Below, piece by piece: positions 61-17,640 of a DNA stretch of 20,271 nt. The translations under genes were made by a program, and so were the position numbers. The notes beneath the pieces were generated by a model, which was not told the DNA's origin, ran no database searches, and was given only the letters and a program-made list of their open reading frames with translations. Source of the DNA: a virus; IMG/VR virus record IMGVR_UViG_3300020463_003070, positions 1-20,271 of that record. One strand, written 5' to 3'. How positions within the stretch are numbered: position 1 is the stretch's first letter; every line of letters starts with the position of its first letter.

Positions 61-230
61 CACCAACCCATATAAATTTTGAAAATGCATCCTACCAATA
101 CCATTATTCCCACCAAAAATCCTGGCACTATTGTTGCAGGGTGCATTCTTGTCATAATATCTTCGTTATCTTTTTCTATTTGTTCCCAATATTCTTTTGG
201 TGTTTCTTCTTTCATATTTTGATTATACAT
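60..230 (-). CDS. Small single-pass membrane protein, 56 aa
   Basis: Reading frame from ATG 230-228 to TGA 62-60. The N-terminal half is charged (MYNQNMKEETPKEYWEQIEK). Residues about 32-53 form a hydrophobic segment (TIVPGFLVGIMVLVGCIF), followed by a short KIYMGW tail, so one transmembrane helix is predicted, probably with the acidic N-terminus outside the bilayer core. The start overlaps the end of the UV endonuclease gene by 8 nt and the stop overlaps the next start as TGATG, which fits a real gene in a compact operon. No family is recognised. A role in lysis or superinfection exclusion is possible for such small phage membrane proteins, but nothing here shows it. Confidence 0.7.
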   Translation of the reverse strand: MYNQNMKEETPKEYWEQIEKDNEDIMTRMHPATIVPGFLVGIMVLVGCIFKIYMGW

Positions 231-1257
231 TTTTTTCTATGTGTTGTCTATATAATTGTTCTGCCGCCATATTTTTACCTTTGGCCTCCGTCTGTATATC
301 AAAGTGTTCACCAAAACTTAATGCCCAATCATTCACCTTGGTATTTGGTAACAAGTCTGAATGTGCTCTCAATTTTTGTTTTTTGCAACCACGTTCTAAC
401 AACATCTTAATATCGTGCATTTCTGAATGTATCTTGTTTCCAAGATTAGCAGGAGCCAAGTGTTCATCTCTCGAATATGAGTAGTGCATTGTAGGGCGTT
501 GTCCACGCCAAGAATCGATGACACGTTTTACTCTATCATCATGTGGTTGAATATATTCTTCTGCTCTTATCCAGTGATGATGTATATCCATGACTAATGC
601 AAGATCTTTTTCTAGTTCTAAACTTGCATCAAGTCCCCAACCCATTTCGTCATTTTCTATCGTGATTAGATTACGTGCTTCTTGTGAAAGTCTTGGAAGT
701 GCTTTACGTATTCCATCTGGTCCTTGCCGACCTGAGATGTGTACATTAATTTTGCATCCATCTTGAAAACTTTTACCGAATCCCATCCAACGGGCCATGT
801 CTGCATGGTACTCAAATTCTTCTATGCTCCTTTCTACAATGTCAGGGGTAACACTAGATAATACACAAAATTGTCCTGGGTGAAAAGATACTTTCACATC
901 ATGTTTTCGTGATGCTTCTCCCACCGGAGCAAATATTTTTTCACAATGGTCTTGAATTTCTTTTTTTTGCCACCAGTCCTTCCAGTTCTTTTCCGTATAT
1001 CCTTGTAGCATTTCGCTACCAAGTCTCACCATCCTACGTTCTGGTGCTAGTGTGCCAACACGTTCAATCATTCTCACAGCCGCCGCGGCGTTGTGATTCA
1101 TAATATCCCATTGTCTTTGTTCAGCATCTTCTGGATGTTCACGCAACCATCTCATTGTGGTTGATCTGCCATTTAGATCTCTGTCCTTGGCATTGACCTT
1201 CATTCCGCCAAATTCAGATTTATCGTTAAGCCATTTGCAACAGAAACCTATACGCAT
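223..1257 (-). CDS. uvsE: UV damage endonuclease, UvdE/UvsE family
   Basis: 344 aa, full length for the UvdE family. These TIM-barrel metalloenzymes nick DNA 5' of UV photoproducts and start an alternative excision-repair route. Conserved blocks run in order: HPGQFCVLS at about 126-134, INVHISGRQG at 170-179, LITIENDEMGWGLD at 197-210, VMDIHHHW at 222-229, PTMHYSYSR at 255-263 and AHSDLL at 298-303. The His, Glu and Asp residues in these blocks match the family's metal-binding site, so an active enzyme is expected. It has its own strong promoter immediately upstream; the -10 element is only 5 nt from the ATG, implying a leaderless mRNA. It probably protects the phage genome in sunlit surface water. 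The assignment is strong; the metal ligands are inferred from motif positions only. Confidence 0.95.
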   Translation of the reverse strand: MRIGFCCKWLNDKSEFGGMKVNAKDRDLNGRSTTMRWLREHPEDAEQRQWDIMNHNAAAAVRMIERVGTLAPERRMVRLGSEMLQGYTEKNWKDWWQKKEIQDHCEKIFAPVGEASRKHDVKVSFHPGQFCVLSSVTPDIVERSIEEFEYHADMARWMGFGKSFQDGCKINVHISGRQGPDGIRKALPRLSQEARNLITIENDEMGWGLDASLELEKDLALVMDIHHHWIRAEEYIQPHDDRVKRVIDSWRGQRPTMHYSYSRDEHLAPANLGNKIHSEMHDIKMLLERGCKKQKLRAHSDLLPNTKVNDWALSFGEHFDIQTEAKGKNMAAEQLYRQHIEKNV

Positions 1258-1658: not shown

Positions 1659-2081
1659 TTAGTCGTTGCCGGGTAAGGATTTCATTTGATAAGCACCACC
1701 CATATTATTGTATGTTGCTTGTTTAGTATTTGCTTCAGTAGGCTCTTCGTCGGAAACTAAAAGTATATCATTTTCGTCGATCATTCTACACTCTTGTTTT
1801 TCACCTTTTTCAGATTCGATGATAAAAGTTCTTGTCCACCGACCATGTGCCACCATAACCCATTGTCCAACTTTTACATCTTTTTGATCTTTTCCTATTG
1901 CGTGTACCTCTGCCCATCTAGGATGAACACCTTGCTCTTTTCCATCGTCATCCATTAAGATTATTCCGCCCTTGGTCTTTGTTTCACCAAAGTGCATATT
2001 TTTTACAATTATTCTCTTTTTAAGTGGAGTGATTTCCTGTGTTGTAGGTACCCAGCCACCTTCACCAAATTTACTTGCCAT
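1659..2081 (-). CDS. GroES-like phage co-chaperonin (gp31-like)
   Basis: 140 aa. The core follows the GroES pattern: ITPLKKRIIVKNM at about 17-29, a mobile-loop region ETKTKGGIIL at 33-42 that in GroES docks to GroEL, then WAEVHAIGKDQKDVKVGQWV, which matches the conserved V.AVG...VKVGD.V strand pair, and a terminal DENDIL strand. It is longer than bacterial GroES (about 95 aa) owing to an N-terminal extension and a C-terminal tail of about 30 residues (EEPTEANTKQ onward). In T4, gp31 replaces host GroES so that the major capsid protein fits in the chaperonin cage; the same role with host GroEL is the natural inference. Its near-consensus promoter overlaps the end of the upstream gene and places +1 at the ATG. 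Confidence 0.85.
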   Translation of the reverse strand: MASKFGEGGWVPTTQEITPLKKRIIVKNMHFGETKTKGGIILMDDDGKEQGVHPRWAEVHAIGKDQKDVKVGQWVMVAHGRWTRTFIIESEKGEKQECRMIDENDILLVSDEEPTEANTKQATYNNMGGAYQMKSLPGND

Positions 2082-2789: not shown

Positions 2790-3185
2790 TTATTCTATAC
2801 CATCTAAAGCGGCGTCGATGCCTGACTTCTCAGACTTTGGTTTGAACGTATCAACTGTTTTAGGTTGAGGTGTCGCTTTTTTAATAGGTTGTTGATTTAG
2901 GATTTTAGTTTCTACTACTTTTGGTCGTTGTACATCAGGTTTCACAGTATTTTCCTGTCTAACTTCTTGAGCAGTAGACACAACACCTTTTGGTTTTTCA
3001 TAATATTGTTTCATCAATTGCTCTCTAGTCTTTAGTATATTTCCACCCGGTCCAATTTCATCACCTCTAGCATTTACGCTCATATTTCCAACTGCCACAG
3101 TAGTTTCGTTTTGCTGTCTCAATTTTTCAATATCAACAGTTTTACCCTGCATAGTCTTGTATACTTTTTTAACTGGTGTTCTCAT
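2790..3185 (-). CDS. Hypothetical protein, low complexity, 131 aa
   Basis: The start is set by a clear Shine-Dalgarno, TTAGGAGAAAAA, just before ATG 3185-3183 (MRTPVKKVYKTMQG). An in-frame GTG 18 nt upstream exists, but it would translate the Shine-Dalgarno itself and is rejected. The protein is rich in Lys, Gln, Pro, Val and Thr with little hydrophobic core, especially after residue 60 (PKGVVSTAQEVRQEN, KATPQPKTVDTFKPKSE), so it is probably largely disordered. It ends in IDAALDGIE. Such proteins in phage structural neighbourhoods can be minor virion or scaffold-associated components, but nothing here proves this. Confidence 0.75.
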   Translation of the reverse strand: MRTPVKKVYKTMQGKTVDIEKLRQQNETTVAVGNMSVNARGDEIGPGGNILKTREQLMKQYYEKPKGVVSTAQEVRQENTVKPDVQRPKVVETKILNQQPIKKATPQPKTVDTFKPKSEKSGIDAALDGIE

Positions 3186-3212
3186 TTTTTCTCCTAAGTT
3201 CACTTTTACTTA

Positions 3213-3737
3213 TCATCGCAAAAATTCACGATAATCTATTTTGTACATCAGTGGATTGATCTTGTGGATACCTATCAAAAATAAACAAAAACTTGCCACA
3301 CTTGATCCTCGGCCAACACCCCAAACTATGTTATGCTTTCTCATCGTATCAACGAAATACACTAAAAACTGGAGGACCTTGATAAAATTTTTCTTCTCAA
3401 ACAACTCGTATTCTTTTTCAACACGTGCCGTTTCCTCTTTGGTTTGACATTTTTCCAAAAGATATTTTTTCATATCTAGATCATAATAGGATTTGGGCAT
3501 ATGCCAATTAGCATAATTTTTTTTGTCAAACTCTGTTACAGTGATGTCTCTTTTAGGAACATTTTTTATTTTTGGTAAATCAACACCGATGTCGTCTAGT
3601 GCTTTTTTATATTGATCAGTATCTTCAAAGTACAGTTTAGAAATATCAAAATCTGGATTTGTATACAGGAATTCTAAAGCATCATCTTCTGTAATAATGC
3701 AATCACCATACTCATTTGTTTTTATTTTTGCCGCCAT
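3213..3737 (-). CDS. Stand-alone fragment of a DnaE-like (C-family) DNA polymerase
   Basis: 174 aa. The C-terminal third reads like the start of the DnaE polymerase palm: a YELFEKKNF...LQFLVYFVDTMRKHNI helix, then VWGVGRGSSVASFCLF (about 138-153), LIGIHKINPL and YREFLR. This matches the bacterial pol III alpha segment containing GRGS, with the ...DPL...FERFLN element behind it. In full enzymes the catalytic Asp-x-Asp follows within about 15 residues; here a TGA ends the protein just before it, and the next gene does not supply it. The first 110 residues are not recognised. The ATG overlaps the upstream gene by 26 nt. It cannot be a polymerase alone; it may bind nucleotide or DNA, partner another protein, or be a relic. 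Confidence 0.75.
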   Translation of the reverse strand: MAAKIKTNEYGDCIITEDDALEFLYTNPDFDISKLYFEDTDQYKKALDDIGVDLPKIKNVPKRDITVTEFDKKNYANWHMPKSYYDLDMKKYLLEKCQTKEETARVEKEYELFEKKNFIKVLQFLVYFVDTMRKHNIVWGVGRGSSVASFCLFLIGIHKINPLMYKIDYREFLR

Positions 3738-4347
3738 CTAATACTCTTGGGTTGAACTCGAATATTTTAGCATGATCTTCGTGCTTCTTGTCAACGACTT
3801 TTTTCTCTTTTTGCCAACTAAAGTGTCCTGTGTATATTCCTTTTGACATTTCATTATCATAAGTTGCGGTATCTGGTCTTAACCACCATGGGTCAAACTT
3901 TTTGTATTTTTCCGAAAACCATTCATTTACATCTAATAGTGTAAGTTCTTTTGCGTTTTTGTCAACCTTATATTTTATTCCATCGCCTTGGAAACTTCCT
4001 AATGTCAAACTTTTAACATGAATTTTACCATCTAGTATTGCATTTGCTTTACAAAAACACACTGATGCCATCACTTGATCGTATGGTGGCTTTGGTAATT
4101 CAATAAATCTATTCATGGTAGACTTTCTTAATATTTGGTAAAGAGGGTCGGATCTATAAGATGTTATTGTGTTGTGGAACACATTTTCAAACAGCAATTT
4201 CAATCTTTCAAAATATGCTGACTGAGTTTTTAAATTTGATGTCGTTGGTTTAATTTCCAATTGCACATCATATTCATTTTGAAAAAGTTCATTGTCAACA
4301 ATTATTATTGATTTAAATTTGGTTGCCCAAGTAAAAGTACTGTCCAT
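3712..4347 (-). CDS. Hypothetical protein, 211 aa
   Basis: Soluble protein beginning MDSTFTWATKFKSIIIVDN. It contains NRFIELPKPPYDQVMASVCF at about 79-98, KSLTLGSFQGDGIKY around 112-126, and a motif rich in Trp and Asp (KKFDPWWLRPDTATYDNEMS). The tail is strongly basic (DGGKNKNK). No family is recognised. Its last codons overlap the start of the DnaE-like fragment by 26 nt, so the two are probably co-translated. It lies 11 nt after the 85-aa gene at the end of the structural block; whether it is a virion or early protein cannot be told from the sequence. Confidence 0.75.
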   Translation of the reverse strand: MDSTFTWATKFKSIIIVDNELFQNEYDVQLEIKPTTSNLKTQSAYFERLKLLFENVFHNTITSYRSDPLYQILRKSTMNRFIELPKPPYDQVMASVCFCKANAILDGKIHVKSLTLGSFQGDGIKYKVDKNAKELTLLDVNEWFSEKYKKFDPWWLRPDTATYDNEMSKGIYTGHFSWQKEKKVVDKKHEDHAKIFEFNPRVLDGGKNKNK

Positions 4348-4636: not shown

Positions 4637-5200
4637 TTAATCATACATCTTACCAAGTTGGTGCATCAAAATCGTAGTACCACCATCCGGAGACATGAAT
4701 TCGTACATATATCTTCCTAATGATCCTATTGTGATTGTGTTAGATGAACCATCACCGCCTGTTACGTTGTCTGCTACAAGCACGGTGCTTGGTATTGTTA
4801 TTGTATGCGATGTGTTTGCATACGTGATATCAAGTATAATTCTGCCTAAAGTTCCTGATACAGGAAAGTTTGTAAATGCCAAAGTTACAGCGGCATTTGT
4901 TGTAATTGTTTGATAGTGTCCGTTTTCATGATTCAAAGTAATATTACCACCTGCTGTGCCATGTCCAAACACAGTTTCGGCAGTGTCTTTTAAAACTGCT
5001 CTTGACACTATGTTGTCGTTAAAACTGTTTGCTACATTGTTAGCAACCGATGATGTTTGTAATGCTTCGATCTCAGACTTTGTCGTTGTAAAATTATTCT
5101 TTGTAGCAGTGAAATTATCTCTAAAACCTTGAGATGAATTATCCTGTCCTGCTATCGGAAATGTCCCGTCTATGTTTCCTGGTACTATACTACTTGCCAT
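4637..5200 (-). CDS. Virion structural protein, fibre or baseplate associated, 187 aa
   Basis: The N-terminus (MASSIVPGNIDGTFPIAGQD, then NSSQGFRDNFTATKNNF) is a divergent version of the adaptor module on the three fibre genes upstream: Gly-Gln-Asp-Asn, FRDNF and NNF replace NDGTGD, LRxAF and NxNF. A short coiled coil follows (TTTKSEIEALQ), then a beta-rich domain (residues about 70-187) with Thr/Asn-rich strands. Its start overlaps the previous stop as TAATG, indicating coupling to the Ig-repeat gene. Cyanophage and pelagiphage structural proteins of this kind are usually called virion structural proteins; the exact position in the particle is unknown. Confidence 0.75.
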   Translation of the reverse strand: MASSIVPGNIDGTFPIAGQDNSSQGFRDNFTATKNNFTTTKSEIEALQTSSVANNVANSFNDNIVSRAVLKDTAETVFGHGTAGGNITLNHENGHYQTITTNAAVTLAFTNFPVSGTLGRIILDITYANTSHTITIPSTVLVADNVTGGDGSSNTITIGSLGRYMYEFMSPDGGTTILMHQLGKMYD

Positions 5201-7975: not shown

Positions 7976-9529
7976 TTAAGATGCTGAATATGTAAATGGC
8001 GTACTTCCGTTCATGGTCAGATACGCAACTTTTTGACTACCACCTAATATACTATTATCAGTTGAATAGTCATTATTTTGTCCTGTGCTAAAAATTTTAT
8101 CACCCGCATTGTTAACCATCCAACCTTTGATTTGTGCTGGAGTCCAGTCAGGGTGAACCTGGGCCACTAGTGCAACTATTCCTGCCACCTGTGGTGCGGC
8201 CATTGAGGTACCACTCATTTTAACTTGTTTAAATGAGCCGCTTAGATTATATGTAACTGCACTTTGTTCATTTGTGTTTGAGCAGGCACTTACAATCTGT
8301 TCGCCACAAGCATAGATGTCAACACCTGGACCAGCAGAACTAAATGATGCTTTTTGATCAAGTGTTGCTGATTGTGTAGTGGCTCTAAGTGCACCTACTC
8401 TTATAATTTCGTCGTCGTGTGGTGATGATCCTCTGTGATAATGATAATAGTTTCCGCTTCCATCTGACAGGAAGTTATCATAGTCTGTGCCAGCCACTTC
8501 GTCGTGCTTCATAAAATTATTTCCCGCAGACACCACAACATGGATTCCTGCTGTTACCATTTGCTGTATGTCAGCATCTATTGATGATATTCTTCTTGGC
8601 ACAAAATAAATGCCAGAAGTATCAGTTGTAGCACCATACACTCCTTTTGCCAACAGATTACCTCTCACTGTTTCGGTGTGGTTGGCTCCTCTGTATTCTC
8701 CGCCGGCGACATCTGCGCCACCAATTGTGTTTGGAGATACGTTTGAATCTAGATAGTAGCCATAACCAAAACTCATATTGACAACTGTGGGTCTCCCTGT
8801 GCCTTTTGAGTTATGCCAGGCAGTAACAATGTCAAAACCTTCTGTCAATGAAATATAACCGGTGCCTTGAATTTTCATTGCATAGATGTGAGCGTTCTTG
8901 GCCCAACCAAAAGTCTTTCCTGCCACTGTGCCGGCCACGTGTGTGCCGTGCCCATTTGTGTCTGTGTAGTGTGACCCTGATTGAGAACCACTTACCCCAG
9001 AAACAGAATACCAGTCGACTTGTTTCAATCTTGAATTACCTTCTGCGTCTTGCCATTCTGGATGTGTAGGTTCTATCCCCGAATCCATTATAACAACATC
9101 AACTCCTGTACCATCAAGAACATAGTTGTATGCTGATCCTGGATCTAAAATTGAAGAACCAAAGTTGTTAGTTGCTGATATGTGTCTTAGCAAACCGTAG
9201 TTGTCCTGATTGCCTGCAGATGTAGTTCCTTTGTTAAAACTTGATGCGTCCTGTCCATCTTGTATTTTAAAAAGCACAGGATCTGGTAAATCTTCTAATG
9301 CGATTATATCTTCAACTCTAGAATCATTTTTTAATTTATTGACTTCTTCGGCAGTAAGATCGTAATGAGTATTTCTTTTATTGGTTGCTCTAAGTTTTGA
9401 AACTGGCACTGCCCTATCTGGAATGATGTTGGAATCTACCGATGCATCACCAGATGTGTCGTTGGTAAGTTCAGTATTCAGATCTTCCCAATTTGCTTCT
9501 TTTTTTACTGTTACTATGTATTCTGCCAT
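7976..9529 (-). CDS. Subtilisin-like serine protease (family S8), 517 aa
   Basis: The full catalytic set is visible: Asp149 in VDVVIMDSGIEPTHPEW, His194 in GHGTHVAGTVAG, the oxyanion Asn337 in VVVSAGNNF and Ser442 in SGTSMAAPQVAGIVAL. Residues about 1-90 resemble an inhibitor-I9-like prodomain (MAEYIVTVKK...LTAEEVNKLKNDSRVEDIIALED), as in secreted subtilases, so autoprocessing is plausible. There is no signal peptide, which fits assembly into the particle rather than secretion. It sits between fibre and Ig-repeat genes within the late module, so a tail-associated protease acting on host surface proteins or maturing tail proteins is likely. An insertion at about 270-320 (GGADVAGGEYRGANHTETVR) is longer than in bacterial subtilisin. 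The family is certain; the role is inferred. Confidence 0.92.
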   Translation of the reverse strand: MAEYIVTVKKEANWEDLNTELTNDTSGDASVDSNIIPDRAVPVSKLRATNKRNTHYDLTAEEVNKLKNDSRVEDIIALEDLPDPVLFKIQDGQDASSFNKGTTSAGNQDNYGLLRHISATNNFGSSILDPGSAYNYVLDGTGVDVVIMDSGIEPTHPEWQDAEGNSRLKQVDWYSVSGVSGSQSGSHYTDTNGHGTHVAGTVAGKTFGWAKNAHIYAMKIQGTGYISLTEGFDIVTAWHNSKGTGRPTVVNMSFGYGYYLDSNVSPNTIGGADVAGGEYRGANHTETVRGNLLAKGVYGATTDTSGIYFVPRRISSIDADIQQMVTAGIHVVVSAGNNFMKHDEVAGTDYDNFLSDGSGNYYHYHRGSSPHDDEIIRVGALRATTQSATLDQKASFSSAGPGVDIYACGEQIVSACSNTNEQSAVTYNLSGSFKQVKMSGTSMAAPQVAGIVALVAQVHPDWTPAQIKGWMVNNAGDKIFSTGQNNDYSTDNSILGGSQKVAYLTMNGSTPFTYSAS

Positions 9530-9536
9530 TTAACTA

Positions 9537-12017
9537 TTAAGAAACGATTGCTCTATCGCTTACTCTTCTCCAATTTGATCCGTCATAAAAGGCTGGTATT
9601 GCGCCACCGGATTCGTTAGTACAGAAAACCATCGATCCTGCTGATGAAGTCAATGATCCTAGTTGAGCAACTGTTTTGCTTACAAGTTTCATTGGTGCAT
9701 CGTTTATAATTTCTTCTACTGGATCTAATGTAATCGTAGTTGGAGAAGTAATAGTGTATGTGCCTGTGCTATCACTTGGTGCTGATATTGTTGAGACTGT
9801 GATTGTATCAGCAAATATTGTTCCTGTTACATTAAGTCCGTCATTTATTGTAACAACTGTTGAGTCACTTGAACTAATTGTATTTGTGTCAATTGTGGAT
9901 GCAGTCAACGGTCCAGATACACGCATTCCATCATTTACTAAAATCTCTGAACTATCAGATGATGAAATCGCGTTGATTATTGGAGTTGTTGTTCCTGTCA
10001 CTGTCAATACATCGCCACTCACTGCGGTTGTTATATTTGTTGCTCCAGCAATTTTAAATGTTTCTCCAAATACTAATGATGTTCCATTACTGTCATCACC
10101 CACTAATTTTAGTGCAACATCTGTTTTTTGTGCGTAATTTGTTAGTGTTGGTCCAGTAATTGTTAAAGTATCGCCTGACATCGCAGTGCCTATTCCAGTA
10201 GCACCAGCAAATTTAATTGTTGATCCTAGTGTTACATTTGTACCGTTTGAGTCATCACCAACTATTTTAATTGGATCATCACTGCCTCCAGTGATTGTCA
10301 TTACATCACCACTTACTGCAACTGTGGCTCCACCTGTTCCTCTAATTCTAAAAGTTTCGCCTGGACTTACTGCTGTGCCAGTTGAATCATCACCAACGAA
10401 AGTAATTGCGCCACCAGATGCAACGTCGTTGGTTATTGTCAACGTGCCTCCAGACAACGCAGTAGTAATACCTGTGCCACCTGCAATTTTAATTGTATCA
10501 CCGGCCGCTACTGTTGAAACTGTTGATGTGTCGTCTGCAATTTTAAGTCCAGAACCTACTCTAGCATCTACATAAGTTTTGTTTGTAGCATCTGTGCCTG
10601 CTGTAGGAGCCGCTAGATTAATAATTTTTTTGTTGTCTACGTCAATGTTTCCTGTACCTTGTGTTGCAAGTTTCAAGTTTCCGTTTGAAGTAATTGCTCT
10701 CACTGTGTTTGTGTCAACAGTTCCTGAAGTTTCTATGTCACCTGCTGATAATGTGTTTGATACAGCGACAAAATTTCCTGCTATTGTTACTGTGCCTGTG
10801 CCATTTGGAGTTATGTTAATACCGCCATTTGTATTTGTTGCCGTTATTGCGTTACCGTTGATGTCGATATTGTCTACTGTCAACGATCCTGTGATGTCAA
10901 CATCTTGGTTTATAAATGTTACCGGTGAACCAAAGTTTACTGTGCCTGAGCCGTTTGCTGTTATACTTAGGTTGGCGTTTGAAGCATTGGTTGAAATTGT
11001 GTTGTCTTTAATTCTTACATAATCAATATCAGATTGCCCTGTGACTGTGTGTGTTCCTACTGTGTTCACATTGGCAGTTGTTAAAACTCCTGATACTCCT
11101 AGTGTGCTTGAGATTGTTTGAGCACCAGTCAAGGCAAGTGTGCTACCATCAAAAGTTAAATTTGCTTCTCCTTGAATAGCATTTGCACCTGTGACAGTCG
11201 TAATAGTGTTGTTTGTTGATCCTGTTAAAACTGCTTTTGTGTCTGCATATGCTTTAATGGATTGTTGCGTTGCCAGTTTTGTCGCACTATCACTGGCCAT
11301 GTTGTCTTCATCTTTTATACCTGTGACAGTTGCTCCATCACCTGCAATGTTTAAAGAAGTTTCGGCAACCAAAGCACCTGTTACGTCAACTGCTTCAGCA
11401 AAAGTGAGTTTTGTTGATGTATCTGAACTTACTGTCGTTCCGTGAATTTTTAATGCTCCAACAAGTATGTCGCCTGTGCCACCTGCTGATAAAACTAAAT
11501 TTGAATTTGAGTTAGATGCTGTAATTTCATTGTCGTTGATAGTGATGTCAGCAATGTTGACTCCACCTGTGCCGTTGCCTTGTATTGTAACTGCACCATT
11601 TGTAACTGTGCTTGTTAATGTTGTTCCGTCTATCTGTAGTTGGTCTGCTTCAAATACACCAGTGACTTTGACTTGATCACTTGCGGCATTTCCTAAATTG
11701 ATATTTCCGTTTGCAACAATGTCTCCTGTTGCAGTGATATTACCTGTAACATTTGTATTTGCTTGTAATTCTATTGTACCTGTACCTGATGGGGATAATC
11801 TGATATTCTCGTTCGATCTGCCAGTGATTATTCTTCTACCATTTAGATCTAAGTCACCTCCCAACTGTGGAGATGAATCTTCTAATAAGTCATTTGCCTC
11901 GTCACTGTTTCCGTACAACTCTGTAAAGTTTTGATTGATTTTTGTGAATGCTGTTCTTAACGGATCACCTGTCCCGTCATTAGCACTAGTTCCGATATTA
12001 ATACTTTGTTTTGCCAT
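9537..12017 (-). CDS. Large repetitive tail-fibre protein, 826 aa
   Basis: The N-terminal adaptor is INIGTSANDGTGDPLRTAF then KINQNFTELY (residues 5-35), shared with the two genes upstream. A long beta-repeat shaft follows, with recurring units of the form I.a..SN.nL.l...GTG.i (for example at about 63-83, 164-184, 340-360, 390-412). Four copies of a 35-residue unit VGDDS.GT....GETFKI.G....TTA.SGD.LT.TG lie at about 493-530, 541-577, 586-622 and 638-675. NLAAPTAGTDATNKTYVDA (about 467-485) is a common phage-fibre element, and the end (GSMVFCTNESGGAIPAFYDG, NWRRVSD) is a typical fibre tip. A late octamer and TAGGA precede the ATG. It probably mediates host recognition. Confidence 0.85.
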   Translation of the reverse strand: MAKQSINIGTSANDGTGDPLRTAFTKINQNFTELYGNSDEANDLLEDSSPQLGGDLDLNGRRIITGRSNENIRLSPSGTGTIELQANTNVTGNITATGDIVANGNINLGNAASDQVKVTGVFEADQLQIDGTTLTSTVTNGAVTIQGNGTGGVNIADITINDNEITASNSNSNLVLSAGGTGDILVGALKIHGTTVSSDTSTKLTFAEAVDVTGALVAETSLNIAGDGATVTGIKDEDNMASDSATKLATQQSIKAYADTKAVLTGSTNNTITTVTGANAIQGEANLTFDGSTLALTGAQTISSTLGVSGVLTTANVNTVGTHTVTGQSDIDYVRIKDNTISTNASNANLSITANGSGTVNFGSPVTFINQDVDITGSLTVDNIDINGNAITATNTNGGINITPNGTGTVTIAGNFVAVSNTLSAGDIETSGTVDTNTVRAITSNGNLKLATQGTGNIDVDNKKIINLAAPTAGTDATNKTYVDARVGSGLKIADDTSTVSTVAAGDTIKIAGGTGITTALSGGTLTITNDVASGGAITFVGDDSTGTAVSPGETFRIRGTGGATVAVSGDVMTITGGSDDPIKIVGDDSNGTNVTLGSTIKFAGATGIGTAMSGDTLTITGPTLTNYAQKTDVALKLVGDDSNGTSLVFGETFKIAGATNITTAVSGDVLTVTGTTTPIINAISSSDSSEILVNDGMRVSGPLTASTIDTNTISSSDSTVVTINDGLNVTGTIFADTITVSTISAPSDSTGTYTITSPTTITLDPVEEIINDAPMKLVSKTVAQLGSLTSSAGSMVFCTNESGGAIPAFYDGSNWRRVSDRAIVS

Positions 12018-12073: not shown

Positions 12074-13057
12074 TTATACAATTATTGCAGTTCTAAATGT
12101 TTTGAAATCTAATGGTGCTATTGCGTTCGGTGTTGCTCTTATTCTAACAGTGCTACCAGATACGTCTGCTGTGATTGTAGCCAGTTGGCTTGATCCAGTA
12201 AAAGTCACACCAAATTCTTGGAAATATGCACTTGTGCCATCGTGCACCACATTCAGTAAACTTGTTTGGTATTCGCTACGAGTGGCGTCTGTAACTTGTA
12301 CCGTGTAGTTGGCACTTCTGTATGTTGCCATTGTAAACTGATCAATGGTCAAGGCGGCAGTTGAACCTGCCGTTTTTGTGGCGTAATCTAATCCAACACC
12401 ACTTTGAATTCTAACGTTTCCTTTACTTGTAGTTTTTAAATCCAAGTGTTGGTCTGTCGCTGTGTTTAAGATATCGTTCCCTTCAATCCTAATGTTTCCT
12501 GCGTCCATTTCTGTAAACACAGAAGTTGTAAGAACGGCATTTATAGTGACTTGATCACCACTGACTGCTGTGGTAACGTTTGTGCCACCTACAAATTTAA
12601 ATGTTTCACCTAAAGGCACCGCTGTGCCTGTGGAGTCATCACCTACAAAAGTGTAACCAGTTGGTGCACCAAAAGACAAGTTGCCTGCGCCATCTGTTAA
12701 TAAAAATGTGTTTGCTGATCCATCTGCTGTTGGATATTTCAATCCACTAATTTTAACTTTACCTGTTCCACTTGCATTCAATACTAGATCATCATTTGAT
12801 CTAGTTGCTGAAATATTGTTGTCACTGAAAGATAATCCTTCCAGTTCAATTATTCCTGTGCCAGATGCAGTTAATTTTAAATTTGCATTTGATTGCGTGG
12901 ATGTAATTTCATTTCCAGCAATTTGTATTTGGGATCCAACGGCAGTGTTTGCATATATTTCTATAAAGTTTGCCTCTACTTTTTGGAAAGCGGATCTTAG
13001 ATCATCACCTGTTCCGTCATTTGCAACTGCTCCTACATTTAAACTTTGTCTAGCCAT
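12074..13057 (-). CDS. Tail-fibre paralogue, 327 aa
   Basis: It begins MARQSLNVGAVANDGTGDDL, then RSAFQKVEANFIEIY, the same adaptor as its neighbours. Two shaft units follow (ITSTQSNANLKLTASGTGII at about 51-70 and ISATRSNDDLVLNASGTGKV at 82-101), then TADGSANTFLLTDGAGNLSF and one copy of the VGDDSTGTAVPLGETFKFVG unit at about 138-157. The C-terminal 150 residues (from MDAGNIRIEGNDIL on) form a different beta-rich domain with YRSANYTVQVTDATRSEYQ, ending NAIAPLDFKTFRTAIIV. The gene starts only 1 nt after the 153-aa paralogue, so the pair are co-translated. It may be a fibre segment or receptor-binding tip; which one cannot be told. Confidence 0.82.
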   Translation of the reverse strand: MARQSLNVGAVANDGTGDDLRSAFQKVEANFIEIYANTAVGSQIQIAGNEITSTQSNANLKLTASGTGIIELEGLSFSDNNISATRSNDDLVLNASGTGKVKISGLKYPTADGSANTFLLTDGAGNLSFGAPTGYTFVGDDSTGTAVPLGETFKFVGGTNVTTAVSGDQVTINAVLTTSVFTEMDAGNIRIEGNDILNTATDQHLDLKTTSKGNVRIQSGVGLDYATKTAGSTAALTIDQFTMATYRSANYTVQVTDATRSEYQTSLLNVVHDGTSAYFQEFGVTFTGSSQLATITADVSGSTVRIRATPNAIAPLDFKTFRTAIIV

Positions 13058-13058
13058 C

Positions 13059-13520
13059 TTATATCGCCTGTAATACTAATTTTTTCCAGACAGCAGTAGA
13101 CCCATCATAGTTGGCAGTACAAACATACAAGTTTGTTCCGTCATAAGATATTGATCCTGCTCTGTCACCTGCGTTACCTATTCCAGTCGCAGTTTTTGTC
13201 GTGTTAATAATTATTCTGTCATCGTTTACAACCACGTTTCCTGTACCATTGACACCTAACGTTAGGTCATTGTTTGTAACCAAAGGAGTTATGGTTGTGC
13301 TGTTGATTTGTAATTGATCTATTTCAACGTTACCTGCACCATTCGGTTGGACCTTGATGTCGCCATTTGTCACAGATGTTGTTAAAAGGCCAGTGTCACC
13401 TGATCCTACTAGTTGGTATACTTCCTCGAAATTAGCATTGACTTTTAACATTGCGCCACGTATTGTGTCGCCTGTTGCTGAATTTCCTTCGGTTCCTGTG
13501 TTTATTATTTGTCTGGTCAT
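13059..13520 (-). CDS. Short tail-fibre paralogue, 153 aa
   Basis: The adaptor is INTGTEGNSATGDTIRGAML then KVNANFEEVY (residues 6-35), slightly degenerate (ATGD for GTGD). Two short shaft units follow (LTTSVTNGDIKVQPNGAGNV and ITPLVTNNDLTLGVNGTGNV), then a compact tip, GDRAGSISYDGTNLYVCTAN...VWKKLVLQAI, like the YDG-Trp tips of many phage fibres. It is the first gene of the late leftward block, with a late octamer 14 nt upstream of ATG 13520. Its small size and identical adaptor suggest it occupies the same docking site as its paralogues or forms an alternative short fibre. Confidence 0.82.
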   Translation of the reverse strand: MTRQIINTGTEGNSATGDTIRGAMLKVNANFEEVYQLVGSGDTGLLTTSVTNGDIKVQPNGAGNVEIDQLQINSTTITPLVTNNDLTLGVNGTGNVVVNDDRIIINTTKTATGIGNAGDRAGSISYDGTNLYVCTANYDGSTAVWKKLVLQAI

Positions 13521-13841: not shown

Positions 13842-14581
13842 TACCTTTTCCAACGAATTGACGTTAAAGGCATTCCGTCCATCACCTTTTTTAGATCTCC
13901 ATAGGTGCCATATTTGAAGTTTTCTAAAAGTGTTGTTGCACTGTGTAATATGAAATTGGATTCGTTTACCTCTATTCTATTGATGTAGTAAAAATTTTTA
14001 TCCTTAAATCTTTTTGCCAATTGTTTCAGTTGCCATCTCCATTCATACTTTAAATATGCTTTCATGCTTTTCCTAGTTGGATAATTTCGAGAGTCTTTGT
14101 ATATGTTGTTTTGATCTCTGCTCATGGACCCGTCTCTTATTGTCCATTGTTTACCCCCTATCATATCAAATCCAATTATAAAAATATCTTTGTGATCATC
14201 AACACAGGCCTGCCACACTGCTGAACATCCAGATCCTTTCGTTTTCGAAAAGTCTAAAGTTTTAAGTTTTTTTCCTTCCTTCCAGCCGCCACCTGCCCAA
14301 TACCTACCTCCATCTTGTGTGTCACTTTTTAGAGTGTAGTCCCATTCGGGTAGTTCTTCGACTCCGATAATTTTTATGTCAGTCGGTATCATGCCCATAC
14401 CTCTGGCTTCAATTAGTTCATCATACATTTCTGAATTAACTGCAATTATTTTATCGCAAAGTTTTGGATGATCTCTGTATATTGCATTACAACCATATAT
14501 GGTTCCCTTGCCACCACGTAAATTATTTAGATTATATATTCTTCGGGATTCGCCGTTACCTATTACGAATGCATAGGACAT
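13838..14581 (-). CDS. GT42/DUF115-like protein (sialyltransferase-type fold), copy 1
   Basis: The start at ATG 14581 (MSYAFVIGNGESRRIYN) is chosen because it overlaps the Fe-S carrier stop as TAATG; a start 30 nt upstream would run into that gene. 247 aa. Motifs are VIGNGESR (6-13), YGCNAIYRD (29-37), KGSGCSAVWQACVD (115-128) and IFIIGFDMIG (133-142). These correspond in order to CstII-type sialyltransferases (IAGNGPSL, RCNQFY, TSGVYMCAVA, IYLSGIDFY) and to related MptE/DUF115 proteins, so a nucleotide-sugar or nucleotide-binding Rossmann-like enzyme is likely. A paralogue lies at 18799-19431. The substrate is unknown; modification of phage or host glycans is the working idea. Family-level confidence is moderate. 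Confidence 0.65.
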   Translation of the reverse strand: MSYAFVIGNGESRRIYNLNNLRGGKGTIYGCNAIYRDHPKLCDKIIAVNSEMYDELIEARGMGMIPTDIKIIGVEELPEWDYTLKSDTQDGGRYWAGGGWKEGKKLKTLDFSKTKGSGCSAVWQACVDDHKDIFIIGFDMIGGKQWTIRDGSMSRDQNNIYKDSRNYPTRKSMKAYLKYEWRWQLKQLAKRFKDKNFYYINRIEVNESNFILHSATTLLENFKYGTYGDLKKVMDGMPLTSIRWKRY

Positions 14582-14910
14582 TAAGCACCGAAACTCTCGC
14601 CACAACCACAAGAAGATTTTGCATTTGGATTGGATATCTCAAAATGAGATCCAAATACTTCTTCTTTCCAATTCACAGTTGTTCCAAGTACAAACATGAC
14701 ACTCATTGAGTCAACAACAAACTTTCCATTGTCCCACTTAACAACAACGTCATCTTTGTTTATTTCTGAATCTTTTGCAAAACCCCAATCATATTTAAAA
14801 CCTGCACAACCGCCACCTAACACTGATAAACGGACAGCGTCTTGTTCAGGATTTTTTGTCAGCAAATTTGACATTTGTACTTTTGCTGTTTCTGTTACAT
14901 TAATTGACAT
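14581..14910 (-). CDS. A-type Fe-S cluster carrier (IscA/ErpA/HesB family)
   Basis: 109 aa, the usual family length. The three cluster-binding cysteines are present: Cys35 in LGGGCAGFKYDW, and Cys101 and Cys103 in SSCGCGESFGA at the C-terminus. The opening NVTETAKVQMSNLL and the middle strand VVDSMSVMFVLGTTVNW also match (family pattern V.D..S...L.G...D). Such proteins receive Fe-S clusters from the scaffold and pass them to target enzymes. It directly follows sufE-like (8-nt gap) and grxD-like genes, forming a compact Fe-S cassette, and its stop overlaps the next start as TAATG. Likely function in infection: keeping host or phage Fe-S enzymes supplied. Confidence 0.93.
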   Translation of the reverse strand: MSINVTETAKVQMSNLLTKNPEQDAVRLSVLGGGCAGFKYDWGFAKDSEINKDDVVVKWDNGKFVVDSMSVMFVLGTTVNWKEEVFGSHFEISNPNAKSSCGCGESFGA

Positions 14911-14918
14911 ACTATTAA

Positions 14919-15320
14919 TTATCTAATTTTTGCCAACATCATTTCTATCATTTGATAAAAACCAGTTTGTCTATTCATTGTTAGCATTTCGTCTAACTTC
15001 ATCTTTTTAAAATCTTCTACTGTGATTTTTTTTGATTCTTCTTCCGTCATACTGTTAAAAATATCAACCAATATATATGCGTAACCTCCGGCAATCATGG
15101 CGTTGCTCCATGCTTTGAACTTGTCATCTTCTCTGTCAACAAAAAGATCGTATTGACAACGGCTTACCCTGTTATTTTCTGTTTGTTTTTCTTTGCTTAA
15201 AGAGTCAGTTGAAAGTTGTTTACCTAACCCAATCAACCATTGGTATACCTCTAGGCTGTCTATATTCTTAAGTGCTTCTAAATGGTCCTTATATTCTTTT
15301 ATTTTTTCATCAAACGTCAT
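14919..15320 (-). CDS. sufE: SufE-like cysteine desulfurase activator
   Basis: 133 aa, normal SufE length (about 138). SufE accepts persulfide sulfur from SufS on a conserved Cys and hands it to the SufBCD scaffold. The key block ENNRVSRCQYDLFVD (about 48-62) corresponds to the SufE V.GC.S.VW motif, with Cys55 as the acceptor; Gly before Cys is replaced by Arg. Downstream the family's D/N-A-x-I-x-x-G pattern is seen as WSNAMIAGGYAYILVD, and the end NRQTGFYQMIEMMLAKI matches the usual sR.nG...M. signature. The start overlaps the glutaredoxin stop as TGATG, indicating coupled translation. The sequence is divergent but the motif order is clear. Confidence 0.85.
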   Translation of the reverse strand: MTFDEKIKEYKDHLEALKNIDSLEVYQWLIGLGKQLSTDSLSKEKQTENNRVSRCQYDLFVDREDDKFKAWSNAMIAGGYAYILVDIFNSMTEEESKKITVEDFKKMKLDEMLTMNRQTGFYQMIEMMLAKIR

Positions 15321-15640
15321 CAGTCTATCCTATCTAATACCTTTTTTAGTTCGCCACTTTCATACATTTCTTTTACAATATCACAACCACCTAGAAATTC
15401 TCCTTTAACGTACAACTGAGGAATAGTTGGCCAGTCACTGAAATCTTTAATTCCTTGTCTTAAATTTTCATCTGCTAAAACATTTACTCCGATAAAATCT
15501 ACTTTTGAAACTTTAAGTATATTTGAGACTGCCATTGAAAATCCACACTGTGGTGCGTCTGGTGTGCCTTTCATGAAAAGAACAATATTATTATTATCTA
15601 TTGTGCTTTGTATTTGTTCATTTATTTGTTTATTTTCCAT
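15320..15640 (-). CDS. grxD: Monothiol glutaredoxin, GrxD type (CGFS)
   Basis: 106 aa, single-domain length. Hallmarks are VLFMKGTPDAPQCGFS with active-site Cys32, the cis-Pro region WPTIPQLYVKGEFLGGCDIV (70-89) and Lys24 for glutathione contact. CGFS glutaredoxins bind a bridging 2Fe-2S cluster with glutathione and transfer it to A-type carriers, frequently with BolA; they are not general disulfide reductants. The ATG lies inside the end of the VOC gene (19-nt overlap) and the stop overlaps sufE as TGATG. No bolA is visible in the window. The neighbours sufE and the A-type carrier make an Fe-S role very likely. Confidence 0.95.
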   Translation of the reverse strand: MENKQINEQIQSTIDNNNIVLFMKGTPDAPQCGFSMAVSNILKVSKVDFIGVNVLADENLRQGIKDFSDWPTIPQLYVKGEFLGGCDIVKEMYESGELKKVLDRID

Positions 15641-17184: not shown

Positions 17185-17640
17185 TTATTTTGACTCGTAA
17201 ATGGCACTGTTAGCACCATGTTCCATACACTCTACTTTGACAACATAACATCTATTGTTAGTTTTCTCTCTAATCAATTTGTCAGCGAATTCAAAGGCGT
17301 GTTTTGCAAACATTTCTGCACCAACACCATCAAACATTCTTATCTCTGCTAGATCTAATTTTTCAAGTTCTTTAAATTTTTCTAAATGCGGATCGTTATG
17401 ATCCAAAGCAAGTTTATGATCAAACTTATCTTCGAGCCATGCTTTCAAAGGTTTGAGTCCTCCAAAGTCAACTGCCCAATTTTTATTATCTAATTCATCG
17501 CACCCAAAAGTAAATTTAAATGCTAACGAATAACCATGTAATAAATGGCAGTGTGAATGATCTGCGTTAGGTTGTCTAAAAACACAGGCTAAACCTATGT
17601 TGTGTCCATATGTCTTCGTACTATAAAATGGCATTCCCAT
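17185..17640 (-). CDS. queD: QueD-like 6-carboxytetrahydropterin / 6-pyruvoyltetrahydropterin synthase
   Basis: 151 aa. QueD makes 6-carboxy-tetrahydropterin on the way to queuosine or 7-deazaguanine. Visible features are the zinc-ligand region HSHCHLLHGYSLAFKFTF (His-rich, with the HGH motif changed to HGY), DFGGLKPLKAWLEDKFDHKLALDHNDP, which matches D(F/L)..LK....LDH..LN, and a C-terminal VVKVECMEHGANSAIYE strand with the family's Glu. A ribosome site AAGGAG lies upstream; spacing to the third codon ATG (17634) is better (8 nt) than to the first (2 nt), so the true start may be MPFYSTKTY. No queC, queE or folE is visible in the window. It may serve tRNA or phage-DNA modification. Confidence 0.85.
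   Translation of the reverse strand: MGMPFYSTKTYGHNIGLACVFRQPNADHSHCHLLHGYSLAFKFTFGCDELDNKNWAVDFGGLKPLKAWLEDKFDHKLALDHNDPHLEKFKELEKLDLAEIRMFDGVGAEMFAKHAFEFADKLIREKTNNRCYVVKVECMEHGANSAIYESK

What the first reader, a model, noticed from the sequence alone, without database searches (positions are those of the whole stretch)
3213..3737. Stand-alone DnaE-like fragment that stops just before the catalytic aspartates
The C-terminus carries the GRGS-containing segment of C-family polymerases and the helix after it, then ends at YREFLR where DxD would follow. Nothing downstream restores the missing part. Retention of such a precise piece suggests a domesticated function (dNTP or DNA binding, an inhibitor or decoy of host DNA polymerase III, or a partner of another phage protein).
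Basis: partly seen in the sequence, partly recalled or inferred. Interest (0 to 1): 0.57.

Follow-up and report, generated by a model that had tools for sequence, protein, structure and literature searches.

The report
N-half of a split phage polymerase
This small phage gene is not a broken polymerase remnant but one half of a miniature bacterial-type DNA polymerase that these viruses encode as two separate proteins, an arrangement already described from genome comparison in 2021 but, as far as I could find, never tested at the bench.

Summary
Observation confirmed: the 174-aa ORF at 3213-3737(-) matches the Pol III alpha NTPase domain (PF07733, E 3.6e-13) and stops at EFLR, just before the catalytic aspartates. 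The end point is a family trait: 52 of 52 IMG/VR relatives stop within 8 residues of it, and so do 18 of 18 loci found through neighbouring genes only.

The missing part is a separate gene (phrog_11778, ~200 aa) that starts at DxDxD and carries the third aspartate and short fingers, beside UvsW, primase and gp41. Of 60 phage records with the N-half, 59 were shown to have the C-half (one unchecked); so do five of five metagenome bins searched, including the one holding a 98%-identical copy of this protein. Models of the halves align to adjoining stretches of E. coli alpha (279-393, 394-784).

This is the split minimal Pol III alpha of Iyer et al. 2021 (PMC7824862). The decoy/inhibitor idea is not supported; 'partner of another phage protein' is. 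The window's 20-kb contig lacks the C-half, and activity is untested. Added here: an apparently marine clade, a 141-kb phage, and family-wide conservation of active-site residues.

The parts
3213..3737 (-). N-half of a split minimal DNA polymerase III alpha (phrog_11127 family), 174 aa
   Evidence: AlphaFold model pLDDT 82; aligned to E. coli alpha 279-393 (4jom Z 11.6, model residues 82-174; 5fku Z 10.6, residues 75-174)
3300..3314 (-). GRGSS motif (residues 142-146), the triphosphate-binding signature of C-family palms (role recalled)
   Evidence: invariant in 41 of 41 distinct ORFs; many IMG/VR rows were fetched with a seed next to the motif, but it is also in 18 of 18 loci fetched by neighbouring genes only
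3216..3227 (-). C-terminal EFLR, the conserved end point; the catalytic DxD would follow
   Evidence: E171 and F172 in 41 of 41; distance from GxGRGS to C-terminus 35-42 residues in 41 of 41, 35 in 18 of 18, 33-39 in 88 of 88
3712..4347 (-). upstream gene, 211 aa, unknown function, overlapping the start of the N-half by 26 bases
   Evidence: no Pfam match over cut-off and no PHROG match; present in 34 of 34 loci of the window's clade, L325-L358
2790..3203 (-). downstream small protein (phrog_14844), 137 aa, conserved neighbour
   Evidence: present in 85 of 88 N-half loci
1659..2081 (-). GroES-like co-chaperonin / head morphogenesis protein (Cpn10; phrog_931), conserved neighbour
   Evidence: present in 82 of 88 N-half loci; same order in the annotation of RaK2, MIJ3, Phosso, 121Q and Vibrio phage 2.275.O

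Best explanation
The ORF encodes the N-terminal subunit of a split, minimal C-family polymerase. Shown: it has the first half of the palm with the GRGS segment and ends where the metal-binding half begins; relatives encode that second half (DxDxD, the third Asp, the RPxK and FKxxH finger residues) as a separate protein of about 200 aa. Inferred: the two proteins bind each other after translation, without splicing, and form one active site in which the N-half holds the phosphates of the incoming dNTP and the C-half the two Mg2+ ions and part of the template. The result would be an alpha of about 380 residues without PHP, thumb, clamp-binding or OB parts. Inferred from gene context (N-half near the gp44 clamp loader, C-half between UvsW and the primase/gp41 genes): it works in the phage's own T4-like replisome beside the family B replicase, most likely as a short-patch or special-task polymerase (gap filling, repair or one strand), possibly with the stand-alone DnaQ-type exonuclease reported in such phages.
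For: Family-wide end point. Partner first seen as weak PF17657 hits, identified as phrog_11778. Co-occurrence: 58 of 60 N-bearing phage records are among the 60 listed of 63 C-bearing records, RAS14 added by profile; 6 of 6 phage genomes and 11 of 19 IMG/VR records including the window's own; 5 of 5 metagenome bins searched, of 7 found. Active-site residues of the C-half (DxDxD, KxD, RPxK): 83 of 83 distinct ORFs, 20 of 20 found by profile without DNA seeds, 79 of 79. Structures: N model to E. coli alpha 279-393, C model to 394-784 (4jom, Z 11.6 and 9.4). No fused form: C ORFs none over 260 aa, at most 232 aa. Context: 80 of 80 C loci have at least one of UvsW, primase, gp41 or the zinc-finger neighbour within the fetched flanks. 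Bacterial DnaE is the single-chain form. Published: Iyer et al. 2021.
Against: The window's 20-kb record has no C-half, so its partner is inferred from relatives. Many contigs with one half lack the other: 8 of 25; all of 26 (one weak hit, E 0.011, in a frame of 1186 aa); 17 of 30; 9 of 13 C-bearing contigs without N; 18 of 20 without a proper N-half. Five C-lacking contigs of 66-231 kb were read end to end and also lack UvsW, gp61 and gp41, so the C region is probably not in them, but that does not prove the gene exists. There are no binding or activity data. With the thumb and much of the fingers missing, processive templated synthesis is doubtful. Foldseek E-values are weak (0.015 and 0.009), and the C alignments have rmsd 5.0-6.0.
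Confidence: 0.83

Rival explanations
1. The protein acts alone as an inhibitor or decoy of host Pol III.
For: It lacks the catalytic aspartates and has its own gene, next to a head-assembly co-chaperonin and fibre-like genes.
Against: The complementary half is encoded by the same phages with the catalytic residues intact. Such phages carry their own family B polymerase in 16 of 17 records. The residues kept best are those of an active site.
Confidence: 0.05
2. The two halves form a heterodimer that is a nucleotidyltransferase but not a templated DNA polymerase (for example end addition to DNA or RNA, or priming).
For: Thumb and much of the fingers are gone: second to third catalytic Asp is 61-65 residues in the C-half against 164 in M. 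tuberculosis DnaE1 (my count from the alignment), while NTP- and metal-binding residues are invariant.
Against: Finger residues RPxK and FKxxHxxxY persist in most, and the C-half gene sits among replisome genes.
Confidence: 0.17
3. A truncated, decaying copy of dnaE.
For: The CBB genome paper called its 172-aa homologue truncated (PMC5259590, passage).
Against: Same end in relatives, pN well below pS, conserved synteny.
Confidence: 0.01
4. A split gene mended into one chain by a split intein or trans-splicing.
For: The cut is at one exact point; C-halves of apparently marine phages begin with MPDxDIDF, close to where bacterial DnaE continues.
Against: The N-half stops at EFLR or EFLK, and in 59 of 83 C-half frames the first possible Met lies 1-5 residues before DxDxD, leaving no room for intein halves. 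Introns were not searched for with Rfam.
Confidence: 0.02

Closest known systems
Split minimal DNA polymerase III alpha of group 2.2 jumbo phages (Iyer et al. 2021, PMC7824862; section 13 and passages read)
   Different: The window belongs to an apparently marine clade known here only as fragments; the pair also occurs in a 141-kb circular phage record, below jumbo size (Slicko01)
Bacterial DnaE (Pol III alpha), e.g. E. coli 2hnh/4jom, M. tuberculosis 5lew
   Same: Palm with GRGS, DxD and third Asp; both models align to adjoining stretches of one alpha chain
   Different: One chain of over 900 residues with PHP, thumb, full fingers and C-terminal parts (domain names recalled) that the phage pair lacks
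CBB_328 of Pectobacterium phage CBB (PMC5259590; passages read)
   Same: 172-aa homologue; a DnaQ-type epsilon gene (CBB_280) is in the same genome
   Different: Described there only as a truncated alpha; its C-half (found here at KU574722 209160-209663) is not mentioned in the passages I saw
Single-chain PHP-less phage DnaE (phrog_405-like), L323 1429-3126
   Same: C-family palm with a GS motif and DVDIDF, in phage contigs that also carry the C-half
   Different: Both halves and a longer finger region in one 566-aa chain

Membership tests
Split minimal Pol III alpha of phages (N subunit, phrog_11127) | Stand-alone palm N-half with GRGS, ending before the catalytic DxD | tested here: met
Split minimal Pol III alpha of phages (N subunit, phrog_11127) | Separate C-half gene (phrog_11778) in the same genome | tested here: inconclusive
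   Absent from the 20-kb contig; present, on another contig, in the metagenome bin that holds a 98%-identical N-half; present in 59 of 60 N-bearing phage records, one unchecked
Split minimal Pol III alpha of phages (N subunit, phrog_11127) | Accompanying family B polymerase | tested here: inconclusive
   The window is too short to tell; PF00136 found in 16 of 17 related records
Split minimal Pol III alpha of phages (N subunit, phrog_11127) | Reconstituted catalytic activity | not testable with these tools
   Needs biochemistry; the paper also infers it
DnaE / PolC, complete C-family polymerase | Catalytic aspartates and the remaining domains in one chain | tested here: not met
   The protein ends before DxD; PF07733 is matched only at 16-94 of 260 positions

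The most novel reading that the evidence does not exclude
The two phage proteins assemble into perhaps the smallest C-family enzyme (about 380 residues, thumbless, two chains). Having lost most parts that hold template and duplex, it may not be a processive polymerase but a dedicated nucleotidyltransferase (primer synthesis, end addition or gap filling) serving a family B replisome, and a living model of the Pol III core before thumb, PHP and clamp-binding parts were added.
Probability: 0.17. Interest if true: 0.72.

Novelty: new member of a known kind. Interest (0 to 1): 0.42.

Why it matters
A replicative-type polymerase split through its active site into two proteins, with no fused copy among the ORFs examined, is unusual, and its activity seems never to have been tested. 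If active it would be a minimal C-family polymerase, useful for learning what thumb, PHP and clamp-binding parts add, and it would mean that many large T4-like phages run two unrelated polymerase families side by side. The window adds a lineage, and the comparative data name the partner and the residues to test.

Tried and rejected
Truncation or pseudogene: rejected. Missing half inside the window: no match to C-half profiles, and the neighbouring ORFs scanned give no polymerase match. Fused N+C form: none among C ORFs (none over 260 aa, at most 232 aa) or N ORFs (at most 210 aa); the long single-chain hits in G062 and G065 are another DnaE family. Not followed to an identity: a weak PF07733 hit in Vibrio phage 2.275.O at 123058-123147 (E 0.06) and a weak C-profile hit in G015 (E 0.011). 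A lax profile and a motif search of five C-lacking contigs found nothing convincing; they also lack UvsW, gp61 and gp41. Tetranucleotide comparison (parts of contigs only) favours but does not prove that the C contig in the MED657 bin belongs to the window-like phage (window to C contig 0.893; the other N contig of that bin to the C contig 0.822). N-C coevolution statistics were not attempted. No absence of a fold is claimed from the VIA-align lists.

Caveat on counts: the search for related loci fetches loci by conserved peptide seeds (MRKHNIVW among those, VWGVGRGS, DIDID and GxxKxD stretches), so motif invariance in those sets is partly built in. Counts free of such seeds for the half in question: 18 N-halves via neighbours and 20 C-halves via profile, and 14 C-halves found with profile A4 (L413-L426). 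Rows dropped: A2 used 33 of 52 loci plus the window (near-duplicates and the fragment L052 left out); A3 used 60 of 80 loci (duplicates or near-duplicates, and L148 and L153 because the matched range ran over a stop). Of 7 metagenome bins found I searched 5 (those of L408 and L412 were not searched). 'Marine' rests on bin names (MED657, Pelagibacter, FRAM18) and is inference.

Full report
Observation. The 174-aa ORF at 3213-3737 on the minus strand matches Pfam PF07733 (DNA polymerase III alpha NTPase domain) over residues 95-173 (E 3.6e-13) and PHROG 11127, 'DNA polymerase', over residues 8-174 (E 5.4e-47). It carries WGVGRGSSVAS and ends YREFLR-stop. The family profile aligns to E. coli alpha residues 323-392, so it ends just before the catalytic aspartates (D401, D403 and D555 by recalled numbering).

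The end point is a family trait. All 52 IMG/VR loci found with the protein encode an ORF that stops 0-8 residues after the same EFLR/EFLK. Of 41 distinct ORFs, phage isolates included, the distance from GxGRGS to the end is 35 in 34 and 36-42 in seven. Loci fetched with neighbouring genes only (queries 3712-4347 and 2790-3203) contain the N-half in 18 of 18 cases, all with distance 35. A further search, with bacterial-bin contigs added, gave 88 of 88 with distance 33-39; some of these records repeat earlier ones. Against four relatives (L183-L186), the window's gene shows pN 0.20-0.23 and pS 0.65-0.87: purifying selection.

The missing half. PF17657 (fingers) gave weak hits in four of 17 N-bearing records. 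These are ORFs of about 200 aa that begin with DIDID and end after FKKxHAxxYA or FKRSHGVAYA; they match PHROG 11778, 'DNA polymerase', with E 3e-63 to 5e-108. Searching 25 N-bearing records with phrog_11778 found it in 17: six of six phage genomes and 11 of 19 IMG/VR records, the window's own 20-kb record being among those without. Among 50,697 phage records, tblastn lists 60 with the N-half at E up to 1e-12 and 63 with the C-half, 60 of them shown; 58 are shared. Of the other two N records, RAS14 has the C-half by profile and CM1 was not checked. Of the two C records without N in the list, Slicko01 has an N-half by profile and W12-3, an unverified 109-kb record, has none. Seven metagenome bins had N-half contigs; I searched five, and all five contain the C-half. 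One is the bin with a contig whose N-half is 98% identical to the window's; there the C-half is on a separate 60-kb contig. In two bins both halves are on one contig (contig lengths 335,231 and 89,521).

Incomplete pairs. Many contigs show only one half: no credible C-half in any of 26, none in 17 of 30, no N-half in 9 of 13 and no proper N-half in 18 of 20. IMG/VR records may be fragments. The C-half lies in a fixed neighbourhood: 80 of 80 C loci have at least one of UvsW, primase, gp41 or a zinc-finger-like protein (phrog_11058) within the fetched flanks. The five C-lacking contigs that I read end to end (66-231 kb) show none of UvsW, primase or gp41, though they do have gp44. So the region that should hold the C-half is probably not in those contigs. 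This is a fair account but not a proof.

Active site. In the C-half, DxDxD, KxD and RPxK are present in 83 of 83 distinct ORFs, 20 of 20 found by profile without peptide seeds and 79 of 79. The N-half keeps GRGSS in 41 of 41. Neither half alone has both the GRGS segment and the metal ligands, so a function that explains both patterns needs both proteins.

Structure. AlphaFold2 models were made from alignments (N: 34 rows, pLDDT 82; C: 60 rows, pLDDT 79). Foldseek ranks Pol III alpha chains first for both, with modest E-values (0.015 and 0.009). In VIA-align 2 the N model aligns to 4jom (E. coli alpha) residues 279-393 (Z 11.6, rmsd 2.4, 93 residues) and the C model to residues 394-784 (Z 9.4, rmsd 5.9, 192 residues). 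The two proteins therefore cover adjoining stretches of one alpha chain. The C-half is much shorter: 61-65 residues from the second to the third catalytic Asp against 164 in M. tuberculosis DnaE1 (my count from the alignment). I read this as loss of the thumb; by the same kind of count some 80 residues are missing within the fingers. Residues 1-74 of the N-half are not covered by these alignments.

Context and function. The N-half has a steady order: upstream 211-aa gene (in the window's clade; 26-base overlap in the window), N-half, small protein phrog_14844, GroES-like protein (phrog_931), with gp44 in 61 of 88 loci within the fetched flanks. A family B polymerase is found in 16 of 17 N-bearing records. 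CBB and Atu_ph07 are reported to carry a Pol III epsilon homologue as well (PMC5259590 and PMC6102473, passages read). I infer a heterodimeric minimal alpha that helps the T4-like replisome. Binding and activity are not shown.

Known or new. Iyer et al. 2021 (PMC7824862; section 13 and passages of other sections read) described this arrangement: a phage-specific minimal Pol III alpha split into an N-terminal NTP-binding and a C-terminal Mg2+/template-binding protein from distant genes in group 2.2 jumbo phages. They suggested that the two reconstitute an enzyme. My literature searches (listings) showed no experimental test; they cover an open-access library only. The window is thus a new member, from an apparently marine clade, of a known but untested kind. 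What I add: residue-level conservation, the replisome neighbourhood of the C-half, the pairing in a 141-kb circular phage record, and the pairing in metagenome bins of the window's clade.

Noticed in passing
L323 1429-3126 (566 aa); L310 11127-12545 (cut at the locus end; 567-aa frame in L324): Contigs that carry the C-half also encode a second, single-chain PHP-less DnaE of about 566 aa with its own DVDIDF and finger motif (PF07733 E 8e-41, PF17657 E 5e-16, phrog_405 E 6e-67): two C-family enzymes in one phage.
   Followed up: partly
C-half loci, e.g. L067 473-1168, L065 36-782: A zinc-finger-like protein of unknown function (phrog_11058) lies near the C-half in 78 of 80 loci, just upstream in those read; a candidate further subunit or regulator.
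   Followed up: partly
window 1659-2081 and 2790-3203: A GroES-like protein and a small phrog_14844 protein stay next to the N-half in most loci (82 and 85 of 88), a puzzling link of a polymerase half with a head-assembly co-chaperonin.
   Followed up: partly
window 14581-15640: Three adjacent genes for iron-sulphur and redox proteins: Fe-S_biosyn, SufE and glutaredoxin, a small Fe-S assembly set in a phage.
   Followed up: no
window 7976-9529: A subtilase-family peptidase (PF00082, E 3.6e-37) among fibre-like genes.
   Followed up: no
window 223-1257: UV-endonuclease UvdE (PF03851, E 5e-30), found with the N-half cluster in 17 of 34 loci of the window's clade.
   Followed up: no
window 17185-17640: 6-pyruvoyl tetrahydropterin synthase (QueD-like) gene (PF01242), possibly for a modified base.
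   Followed up: no
window 4637-5200, 9537-12017, 12074-13057, 13059-13520: Four proteins share a similar N-terminal stretch by eye, apparently a repeated fibre module.
   Followed up: no
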